Shown: piece by piece, positions 1-64,000 of the stretch | How the letters are laid out: each line of letters begins with the position of its first letter | Position numbering within the stretch: position 1 is the stretch's first letter | NCBI GenBank assembly: GCA_002291465.1 | Contig: CP021238.1 | Location: 372,001 to 436,000, forward strand | Length of the DNA: 64,000 nucleotides | Source: Mycobacterium lepraemurium | GTDB lineage: Bacteria > Actinomycetota > Actinomycetes > Mycobacteriales > Mycobacteriaceae | Reading direction: 5' to 3' | Position numbers and translations under genes: made by a program | Notes under the pieces: generated by a model | The model's input: only the letters and a program-made list of their open reading frames with translations | Told to the model about the DNA's origin: nothing | The model's database searches: none

Positions 1-531
1 TGCATCGTGGTCGGGCACAGCATGGGTGGCGGGATCGTGTTCGCCTACGGCGTCGAGCGCCCCGACAACTACGACCTGATGGTGCTGTCCGGTCCCGCGG
101 TGGCGGCCCAGGACCAGGTGTCGCCGCTGCTGGCGCTGGCCGCCAAGGTGCTCGGCGTGATTATGCCCGGGCTGCCGGCGCAGGAACTCGACGCCGACGC
201 CATCTCCCGGGACCCCGAGGTGGTGGCCGCCTACCGCAACGATCCGCTGGTGTGCCACGGCAAGGTCCCGGCCGGCGTGGGCCGCGCGTTGTTGCAGGTG
301 GGTGAGACGATGCCGCAGCGGGCCCCGGCGCTGACGGCGCCGCTGCTGGTGGTGCACGGCTCGGACGACTGGTTGATCCCGGTCGCCGGCAGCCGGCGCC
401 TGGTCGAATGCGTGGGCTCGGCCGACGTCGAGTTGAAGGTCTACCCGGGGCTCTACCACGAGGTGTTCAACGAGCCCGAGCGCGAGCAGGTGCTAGACGA
501 TGTGGTCGGCTGGATCACCGCTCGGCTGTGA
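1..531 (+). CDS. Monoacylglycerol lipase, 3' part (Rv0183 ortholog)
   Basis: Alpha/beta-hydrolase running into the left window edge; the reading frame is open from base 1, giving the last 176 residues. The family hydrolyses monoacylglycerols to glycerol and fatty acid, and in M. tuberculosis the enzyme is cell-wall associated. The nucleophile elbow GHSMGG lies at residues 5-10 of the visible part, the acid Asp in GSDDWLIP and the catalytic His in GLYHEVF, so the whole triad is visible. The Rv0183 protein is 279 residues with Ser at about 110; the visible Ser at 7 implies about 103 residues lie outside the window, which adds up exactly. Nothing looks damaged. Confidence 0.9.
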   Translation, partial: CIVVGHSMGGGIVFAYGVERPDNYDLMVLSGPAVAAQDQVSPLLALAAKVLGVIMPGLPAQELDADAISRDPEVVAAYRNDPLVCHGKVPAGVGRALLQVGETMPQRAPALTAPLLVVHGSDDWLIPVAGSRRLVECVGSADVELKVYPGLYHEVFNEPEREQVLDDVVGWITARL

Positions 532-603
532 GGCCGCCCGTGTCGGACCCCTCCCGTAAGTTGGCGCGTATGACTTCCGCAGCGATGAGGAGGAGCGGCG
601 CAA

Positions 604-1353
604 GTGAGTGACGACAAGATGCTGGCGCGCATCGCCGCGCTGCTGCGGCAGGCCGAAGGCACCGACAACAGCCACGAGGCCGACGCGTTCATGTCGGCCG
701 CGCAGCGGCTCGCGACGGCCGCGTCCATCGACCTCGCGGTGGCCCGCTCGCATTCGGCCCAACGTTCGGCGGCCCAGGCCCCGACCCAGCGCACCATCAC
801 CATCGGCGCGGCGGGCAGCAAGGGGTTGCGCACCTACGTGCAGTTGTTCGTTCTGATCGCGGCGGCCAACGACGTGCGCTGCGATGTGGCCTCCAATTCG
901 ACGTTCGTCTACGCCTACGGGTTCGCCGAGGACATCGACGCCAGTCATGCCCTGTATGCCAGCCTGGTCGTGCAGATGGTCCGCGCCTCCGACGCCTACC
1001 TCGCCTCGGGAGCGCACTGCCCGACCCCGACCATCACCGCCCGGCTCAACTTCCAGCTGGCCTTCGGGGCGCGCGTCGGCCAGCGGCTGGCCGAGGCCCG
1101 CGATCAGGCGCGCCAGGAAGCCACCAAGGACCGTCGTCGCGCGCCGGGCACCGCTATTGCCTTGCGGGACAAGGAAATCGAACTGGCGGACTTCTACCGC
1201 AGCGCGTCGAAGGCGCGCGGAACCTGGCAGGCCAGTCGCGCGTCGGCTGGATATTCCTCTGCGGCGCGGCGGGCGGGCGATCGGGCCGGAAGGCGGGCGC
1301 GGCTGGGCAGCAGCCCCGAGCTGCCCGGGGCGCGGAGCGCGCTGAGCGGGTGA
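604..1353 (+). CDS. DUF2786 protein, Rv0184 ortholog
   Basis: A 249-residue protein of unknown function, the same length as Rv0184. The N-terminus (MLARIAALLRQAEGT, then an HEADAFMSAAQRLA-type helix) is the DUF2786 signature, a short helical domain. The C-terminus is Arg/Ala-rich. The GTG start at 604 is supported by a strong GAGGAGGAG ribosome-binding stretch ending about 10 bases upstream. Its stop overlaps the start of the next gene (GTGA), so the two are probably translationally coupled. No catalytic motif recognised. Confidence 0.85.
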   Translation: MSDDKMLARIAALLRQAEGTDNSHEADAFMSAAQRLATAASIDLAVARSHSAQRSAAQAPTQRTITIGAAGSKGLRTYVQLFVLIAAANDVRCDVASNSTFVYAYGFAEDIDASHALYASLVVQMVRASDAYLASGAHCPTPTITARLNFQLAFGARVGQRLAEARDQARQEATKDRRRAPGTAIALRDKEIELADFYRSASKARGTWQASRASAGYSSAARRAGDRAGRRARLGSSPELPGARSALSG

Positions 1354-1862
1354 GCTCCGGGGACTCCCCGCCGCGGGATTCTCAGCGCTCCAGGGTCTAT
1401 GCGGCCGAGGAGTTCGTCCGGACGCTGTTCGACCGCGCCGCCGAGCACGGGTCACCCGCGGTGGAGTTCTTCGGCACCCGGCTGACTCTGCCGCCGGAGG
1501 GCCGATTCGGCTCGGTGCCTTCCGTGCAACGCTATGTGGACCAGGTGCTGGCCCTGCCCGCCGTGCGGCAACGGTGGCCCGATGTGCCGCCGCTGCGGGT
1601 GCGGCCGCGGCGGGCCGCACCCGCCACGCACTACGAAAACCGCGACGGCGCAGGCGTTATCGCGGTGCCCGACCGCGACACCGCCGAGTGGGCCCTGCGC
1701 GAGCTGGTGGTGCTGCACGAAGTGGCGCATCATTTGTGCCGGGCCGGGCTTCCGCACGGCCCGGAGTTCGTCGCGACGATCTGCGAGTTGACGGAGCTGG
1801 TGATGGGACCCGAAGTCGGGCATGTGCTGCGCGTCGTCTACGCCAAAGAGGGTGTGCGATGA
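1350..1862 (+). CDS. HExxH putative metallohydrolase, Rv0185 ortholog
   Basis: A 170-residue protein, close to the 169 of Rv0185. It carries a zinc-metallopeptidase-like HEVAHH helix near residues 126-131, followed by GLPHGPEF, where the His could be a third metal ligand. The family (mycobacterial TIGR04338-type) has no established substrate. It starts with GTG overlapping the Rv0184 stop and ends in an ATGA overlap with bglS, so Rv0184, Rv0185 and bglS form a tightly coupled unit. The frame is intact although the gene just downstream is ruined. Confidence 0.82.
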   Translation: MSSGDSPPRDSQRSRVYAAEEFVRTLFDRAAEHGSPAVEFFGTRLTLPPEGRFGSVPSVQRYVDQVLALPAVRQRWPDVPPLRVRPRRAAPATHYENRDGAGVIAVPDRDTAEWALRELVVLHEVAHHLCRAGLPHGPEFVATICELTELVMGPEVGHVLRVVYAKEGVR

Positions 1863-63287: not shown

Positions 63288-63339
63288 GCGGCGCGCAGGG
63301 CAGGGCGGCAAGACGCAAAGGCGCCCGCCACCCCCTTGG

Positions 63340-63376
63340 CTGTGAGCTTGCTCACAGTAGGATGACCAGTGGTCAT
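63340..63376. promoter_or_regulatory. Two palindromic operators before the Rv0232 gene
   Basis: CTGTGAGC-TT-GCTCACAG (63340-63357) and ATGACCA-G-TGGTCAT (63362-63376) are both perfect palindromes. They end 17 bases before the TTG start of the TetR gene, a typical arrangement for autoregulation. Confidence 0.72.
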
Positions 63377-63393
63377 TGAGATAGGAGGCGGCA

Positions 63394-64000
63394 TTGCCCA
63401 CGGTCACTTGGGCGCGCGTCGACCCGGCTCGACGCGCGGCGATCATCGAGGCAGCGGAGTCGGAATTCGGCGCGCACGGATTCTCCCGCGGCAGCCTGAA
63501 CGTCATCGCCCGCAAGGCCGGCGTGGCCAAGGGCAGCCTGTTCCAGTACTTCGCCGACAAGCGCGATCTGTATGCGTTCATCGCCGACATCGGCAGCCAG
63601 CGGGTCTGCGGCTACATCGAGCAGCTGAGAGCAGCTGATCCGCGAGCTCGACCCGACCCGGCCGTTCTTCGAATTCCTCACCGACCTGCTCGACGGGTGG
63701 GTGGCCTACTTCGCCGACCACCCGCACGAGCGGGCGCTGCACGCCGCGGCCACGCCGGAAGTCGACACCGAGGCCCGGATCAGCGTGCAGAACGTCATCC
63801 ACCGCCACATCCACCGCCACTACCTGGAGGTGCTGCGGCCGCTGGTGCGCGACGCCCGGCTGCGCGGCGACCTGCGCGCCGACTCGGACACCGACGCGCT
63901 GTTGTCGTTGCTGCTGCTGATCTTCCCGCACCTGGCGCTGGCTCCCTAACATGCGCGGACTGGATCCGGTGCTTGGGCTCAACGAGCCCACCCCCGAGCA
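63394..64000 (+). pseudogene. TetR regulator pseudogene (Rv0232), runs off the window
   Basis: TetR regulator whose TTG start at 63394 is placed by AGGAGG 5 bases upstream. Helix-turn-helix region SLNVIARKAGVAKGSLFQYF is near residue 35. A 10-base tandem duplication at 63619-63638 shifts the frame after YIEQL; the correct continuation is IRELDPTRPFFEFLTDLLDGW. An extra A at 63948 or 63949 (LALAP-YMRGLDP) makes a TAA, after which homology (MRGLDPVLGLNEPTPE) continues to the window end. Rv0232 has 229 residues, so the last part lies outside. Confidence 0.88.
63619..63638 (+). repeat. 10-base tandem duplication inside the Rv0232 gene
   Basis: GAGCAGCTGA occurs twice (63619-63628, 63629-63638). 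One copy gives EQLIREL; the extra one is the frameshifting lesion. Confidence 0.92.

What the first reader, a model, noticed from the sequence alone, without database searches (positions are those of the whole stretch)
1..64000. Selective gene decay across a conserved mycobacterial locus
About 22 of 56 genes are disrupted, many by two to five lesions, while about 34 are clean. Lesions avoid mmpL3, mmpL11, pckA, zmp1, ilvD, trmB and Rv0224c-Rv0228 (together over 18 kb) and accumulate in beta-oxidation, redox and accessory genes. Random base-calling error would hit long intact genes equally. Deletion-fusions, tandem duplications and an active-site substitution are also not typical sequencing errors. 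The pattern is reductive evolution of a host-restricted avium-complex organism, perhaps M. lepraemurium.
Basis: partly seen in the sequence, partly recalled or inferred. Interest (0 to 1): 0.75.

Follow-up and report, generated by a model that had tools for sequence, protein, structure and literature searches.

The report
Gene decay in rat-leprosy bacillus genome
This stretch very likely belongs to the already published genome of Mycobacterium lepraemurium, the rat-leprosy bacillus, and 18 of its 50 comparable genes are broken while 32 stay open, most likely because life confined to a host made the broken ones dispensable; the general finding was printed in 2017, so this is a well-supported but ordinary example.

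Summary
Against healthy relatives, 18 of 50 comparable genes in the window are broken, 4 more are deleted, and one open gene (a GGDEF protein) is probably dead. The same method finds 0 to 2 broken genes per relative. Lesions are not random: in 20,000 random scatters of 36 lesions none left as much sequence clean. Lesion density is 0.04 per kb in genes that M. leprae keeps and 1.13 per kb in the others.

Four points go beyond the text I read. Of 20 genes kept by M. leprae, 19 are open here; the exception is an Rv0216 homologue with one in-frame stop. Broken genes were as constrained as kept genes in a healthy relative. Synonymous divergence is not raised, so I see no mutator, against the paper's suggestion about DnaE2. 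Decay looks young: about 5% of the branch allowing for general relaxation (interval includes zero), about 13% without that correction. Modest interest.

The parts
1868..3637 (+). glycoside hydrolase (bglS-like), broken: 2 frame changes, 1 stop, deletions
3650..4181 (+). methyltransferase-like (Rv0187-like by order), broken; a deletion removes its end and that of the facing gene
4129..4921 (-). nitronate monooxygenase-like gene, broken
5682..7394 (-). ilvD-like gene (name recalled), open
10967..13182 (+). molybdopterin oxidoreductase (Rv0197-like), broken: 4 frame changes
13183..16733 (.). island absent at this place in the four healthy relatives; holds an alpha/beta hydrolase, broken LysR gene and a ferritin-like gene
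31709..33711 (+). Rv0209- and Rv0210-like genes, both broken and partly fused by a deletion
33804..35690 (+). pckA-like gene (name recalled), open
35727..36737 (-). GGDEF protein, open but probably dead: frameshifting indels, shifted stretch, changed catalytic motif
36984..38504 (+). fadD4, broken: 2 frame changes, 1 stop
39574..40088 (-). small gene of unknown function, broken
40142..41288 (-). acyl-CoA dehydrogenase (fadE3-like), broken
41437..42438 (+). Rv0216 homologue (hydratase-like), one in-frame stop; the only gene in the count that M. leprae keeps and this genome has broken
42405..44725 (+). CoA-transferase family III gene and amidohydrolase gene, both broken
44754..45671 (-). lipase of the LipP1/hormone-sensitive type (lipW-like), open
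45905..49488 (+). esterase (lipC-like), wax ester synthase/DGAT and enoyl-CoA hydratase (echA1-like), all broken; genes lost on either side
49582..60356 (.). block of 9 open genes including the aldehyde dehydrogenase and Rv0224c-Rv0228-like genes
60393..64000 (.). phosphotriesterase (16-bp tandem duplication), fadE4-like and TetR-like genes (10- and 12-bp duplications in the last), all broken; a FadD-family gene deleted beside them

Best explanation
The window is very likely a typical piece of the M. lepraemurium Hawaii chromosome, in which genes no longer needed for life inside a host have probably been broken by ordinary small indels, stops and deletions and fixed by drift, while purifying selection would have kept the rest open. 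Shown: which genes are broken; that lesions avoid genes M. leprae also keeps; that synonymous divergence is not raised; that amino-acid change is raised in broken genes and, pooled, in kept genes. Inferred: that host restriction removed the need for the fatty-acid, redox and accessory genes, and that a small population let the lesions become fixed.
For: Exact genome length and broken DnaE2 as published. 17 of 48 VULN-based genes broken, 36 lesions, 36.5 of 58.5 kb clean, 0 of 20,000 random scatters as clean. Fisher test with M. leprae: 19 of 31 open genes also open there, 1 of 21 lost or broken genes open there, p = 3e-5; p from 1.8e-6 to 2.4e-4 over nine threshold pairs, and 0.0014 if only genes found in the M. 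leprae stretch are used. Lesions per kb 0.04 against 1.13. Open and broken genes are clustered: 14 runs, 26 expected, P = 0.00015. Broken genes: dN/dS 0.252 here against 0.142 in VULN, 15 of 17 genes point that way. Synonymous changes 1482 here, 1535 in VULN, p = 0.33.
Against: The rise of dN/dS in kept genes is clear only pooled (0.198 against 0.130, ratio 1.19-1.97); by gene 18 of 30, p = 0.36. With that background subtracted, the extra relaxation of broken genes has an interval that includes zero. dN/dS on this branch does not differ firmly between broken and open genes (p = 0.08). One broken gene, the Rv0216 homologue, is kept by both leprosy bacilli. Host restriction and small population were not measured. 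M. avium, the nearest free-living relative, was not found among the genomes searched.
Confidence: 0.93

Rival explanations
1. The broken frames are sequencing or assembly errors, mainly single-base indels left from long reads.
For: 26 of 40 clean frameshifting indels are single bases, and 5 of 30 short ones lie in runs of four or more, above the 3.1% background (p = 0.002). One relative's assembly has an mmpL3 frameshift of its own.
Against: Lesions avoid 36.5 kb of 58.5 kb coding sequence (0 of 20,000 scatters); 23 of 30 short indels lie in runs of one or two; 8 stops, deletions up to about 160 bp within genes and four whole-gene losses are not of that kind; the genome was sequenced with PacBio and Illumina.
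Confidence: 0.03
2. A mutator state (loss of the DnaE2 polymerase or of repair) drove the decay, as the genome paper suggests might contribute.
For: The error-prone DnaE homologue lies in three frames; the paper proposes the link.
Against: Synonymous change on this branch is not raised (1482 against 1535, p = 0.33); frames of NucS, the main DnaE and one DinB-type polymerase are open; abstracts seen link DnaE2 to causing mutations. A late mutator, or one acting on indels only, is not excluded.
Confidence: 0.08
3. Decay simply hits genes that are loosely constrained in the whole genus, with no link to lifestyle.
For: Some broken genes also evolve fast in VULN, such as the CoA-transferase and Rv0210-like genes.
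Against: Constraint on the healthy branch is the same for broken and open genes (0.142 against 0.130, p = 0.41); gene state is clustered along the map and follows retention in M. leprae.
Confidence: 0.05

Closest known systems
Mycobacterium lepraemurium Hawaii genome, CP021238 (Benjak et al. 2017, PMC5646247; parts 1 and 2 of 3 read, supplements not)
   Same: Same genome length, broken error-prone DnaE, about 30% pseudogenes, no AT shift, convergence with M. leprae.
   Different: Nothing of kind. The text I read holds no lesion-per-kb test, no branch-wise substitution test and no mention of the Rv0216 homologue; my synonymous counts do not support its mutator suggestion.
Massive gene decay in M. 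leprae and M. lepromatosis
   Same: Independent decay of largely the same genes; in this window the set M. leprae keeps is nested in the set kept here, with one exception.
   Different: An earlier stage: 12 of 31 open genes here are not open in the M. leprae stretch, lesions per gene are few, and GC has not dropped.

Membership tests
M. lepraemurium strain Hawaii genome | single contig of 4,050,523 bp | tested here: met
M. lepraemurium strain Hawaii genome | error-prone DnaE homologue nonfunctional | tested here: met
   three pieces in three frames
M. lepraemurium strain Hawaii genome | about 30% of genes are pseudogenes | tested here: met
   18 of 50 in the window, p = 0.35 against 1139/3821
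M. lepraemurium strain Hawaii genome | record name or accession of the window | not testable with these tools
M. leprae-type reductive evolution | loss of the same genes as M. leprae | tested here: met
   20 of 21 lost or broken genes are not open in the fetched M. leprae stretch; M. leprae was not searched outside that stretch
M. leprae-type reductive evolution | AT enrichment of decayed genes | tested here: not met
   GC of broken genes 0.695 here, 0.685 in VULN at the same sites

The most novel reading that the evidence does not exclude
Leprosy-like mycobacteria lose genes in a predictable, nested order without any rise in mutation rate, taking out genes that were fully constrained in free-living relatives; the rat-leprosy bacillus is an early stage of the path that M. 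leprae finished. The Rv0216 homologue, found in 139 of 148 sampled genomes of the genus and kept open by both human leprosy bacilli but stopped here, marks the one step where the rodent parasite has left that path.
Probability: 0.35. Interest if true: 0.5.

Novelty: already known. Interest (0 to 1): 0.3.

Why it matters
The window gives a clean, quantified example of how an intracellular pathogen sheds genes: which functions go first, how far this agrees with an independent case, and that a normal synonymous rate goes with it. It also flags one gene, the Rv0216 homologue, whose loss sits oddly with a cited paper whose title calls it essential for survival of M. tuberculosis during infection (seen only in a reference list).

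Tried and rejected
Nucleotide-only alignment to count lesions gave paired shifts in long open genes, so it was dropped for frame-aware matching. Two working halves of the Rv0216 homologue: both halves are open frames and the second half shows no clear relaxation, but the stop lies ahead of a conserved stretch that I read as still part of the first domain, and the predicted structure was too poor to use (mean pLDDT 33); left open, judged unlikely. Search for that protein in viral contigs: no relative. Dating: 4.5% of the branch (interval -7.5 to 13.8%) with background relaxation subtracted, 12.8% (7.5 to 19.9%) without; these are shares of the branch since the split from the VULN clade. DinB1 slippage: one Y-family frame is open at 514 aa and PMC9346131 (abstract and section list seen) links DinB1 to frameshifts in runs, but 23 of 30 short indels here are in runs of one or two.

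Full report
What the window is. It is bases 372,001-436,000 of a single contig of 4,050,523 bases. Benjak et al. 2017 (PMC5646247; parts 1 and 2 of 3 read, supplements not) give 4,050,523 bp for M. [quoted passage not shown] The identity is inferred from length, content and the broken error-prone DnaE homologue; no tool named the record.

How I counted. References were colinear stretches of Mycolicibacterium vulneris DSM 45247 (VULN), two unnamed relatives (G259, 89% identical in the gene at 20645-23731; G058, colinear only for the first 45 kb) and M. parascrofulaceum (PARA), plus M. leprae TN and M. lepromatosis FJ924. Genes were predicted in the healthy relatives, two were added by hand, and starts were trimmed by agreement among relatives. 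A gene counts as open if one stop-free frame covers at least 90% of the trimmed protein; for M. leprae 85% was used.

Result. Of 52 VULN genes, 31 are open, 17 broken and 4 absent. Two genes were left out before counting: one at the left edge and one with no match in the other stretches. One more broken gene (nitronate monooxygenase-like) and one more open 98-aa gene come from G259. So 18 of 50 present genes are broken, which does not differ from the published genome-wide share (p = 0.35). The 17 genes hold at least 28 frame changes and 8 stops. Relatives by the same method: G058 0 of 33 broken, PARA 1 of 49 (mmpL3, partly matched), G259 2 of 52 (an mmpL3 frameshift; one gene cut by the end of the fetched stretch). 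An open GGDEF gene is probably also dead: three clean frameshifting indels, eight of nine consecutive residues changed, and a changed catalytic motif. Two of the island genes, not in these counts, also look broken.

Not chance, not base-calling alone. Scattering 36 lesions over 58.5 kb of coding sequence never left 36.5 kb clean in 20,000 trials (mean 24.7 kb). Genes kept by M. leprae carry 1 lesion in 25.0 kb, the others 35 in 31.1 kb (p = 2e-8). Broken and open genes are clustered along the map (14 runs, 26 expected, P = 0.00015): 11 genes from zmp1 to trmB and 9 from 49.6 to 60.4 kb are open, while of 13 genes from fadD4 to echA1 nine are broken, two absent and two open. Of 40 clean frameshifting indels in 16 broken genes examined (15 with one or more; the Rv0209-like gene could not be aligned), 26 are single bases, 14 deletions and 12 insertions; of 30 of one or two bases, 23 lie in runs of one or two, while 5 lie in runs of four or more against a 3.1% background (p = 0.002). 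Eight further frameshifting indels appear in 5 genes counted open, 3 of them in the GGDEF gene; I did not resolve the other five, but a single frame stays open across those genes. Of 14 listed insertions of 4 to 60 bp, 4 are perfect tandem duplications, of 16, 12, 10 and 6 bp.

Convergence with M. leprae. Of 31 open genes 19 are open in M. leprae; of 21 lost or broken genes 1 is (Fisher p = 3e-5; p = 0.0014 if only genes found in the M. leprae stretch are used). Genes called absent in M. leprae were sought only in the fetched 76 kb. The paper already notes convergence at gene-content level. Here the kept set of M. leprae is nested in that of M. lepraemurium with one exception, a homologue of Rv0216 (PDB 2bi0, E = 1e-185). 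It has one in-frame stop about two fifths into the conserved part and no frameshift in the gene. It is found in 139 of 148 genomes of the genus, this one included. Nineteen rows of that call carry a stop in the matched stretch, this genome included; the other 18 all start within the first 24 residues of the query, where starts differ, so their stops may lie upstream of the gene, but I did not check and cannot say that this is the only internal stop. In its second half this branch shows 11 non-synonymous and 14 synonymous changes against 9 and 17 in VULN with PARA as outgroup, and 9 and 20 against 15.5 and 19.5 with G058: the stop is recent or tolerated. That Rv0216 is essential for survival of M. 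tuberculosis during infection is the title of a cited paper, seen only in a reference list.

Mechanism from substitutions. With PARA as outgroup I counted codons in which one lineage alone differs (30 open and 17 broken genes; the GGDEF gene dropped because PARA lacks it). Broken genes: dN/dS 0.252 here, 0.142 in VULN. Open genes: 0.198 here, 0.130 in VULN; pooled ratio 1.52 (1.19-1.97), but only 18 of 30 genes point that way (p = 0.36). Healthy-branch constraint does not differ between broken and open genes (p = 0.41); on this branch the difference is p = 0.08. Synonymous changes total 1482 here and 1535 in VULN (p = 0.33), so there is no sign of a raised substitution rate; NucS and main DnaE frames are open. 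This does not support the paper's suggestion that the nonfunctional error-prone polymerase might raise the error rate, though a late or indel-only mutator remains possible. GC has not fallen in broken genes, in line with the paper. The neutral share of the branch is 4.5% (-7.5 to 13.8%) or 12.8% (7.5 to 19.9%), depending on whether general relaxation is subtracted.

Literature. Among the titles listed by three searches of the open-access library (with 15 of 76 listed, 55 with 12 of 13 listed) I saw one genome paper on this organism; subscription papers are not held and no supplement was read.

Verdict. The observation and its reading are right. The phenomenon and, very likely, the genome are already known. 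New relative to the text I read are the window-level tests and one gene that does not fit.

Noticed in passing
13183-16733: A 3.5-kb island sits between a truncated oxidoreductase gene and zmp1 and is missing there in four healthy relatives; pieces of it match 40 other genomes of 247, in no listed case as a whole.
   Followed up: partly
41437-42438: The Rv0216 homologue has one stop and no frameshift, and its second half shows no clear relaxation, so the stop is recent or tolerated.
   Followed up: partly
L143, L144, L145: The error-prone DnaE homologue lies in three frames, yet synonymous divergence in the window is not raised.
   Followed up: partly
L152: Of two Y-family polymerase matches in the genome, one has an open frame of only 214 aa and may be a second decayed polymerase.
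   Followed up: no
L113 (mmpL3-like gene of reference G259): This otherwise healthy reference has a single frameshift in its mmpL3-like gene, perhaps an assembly error.
   Followed up: no
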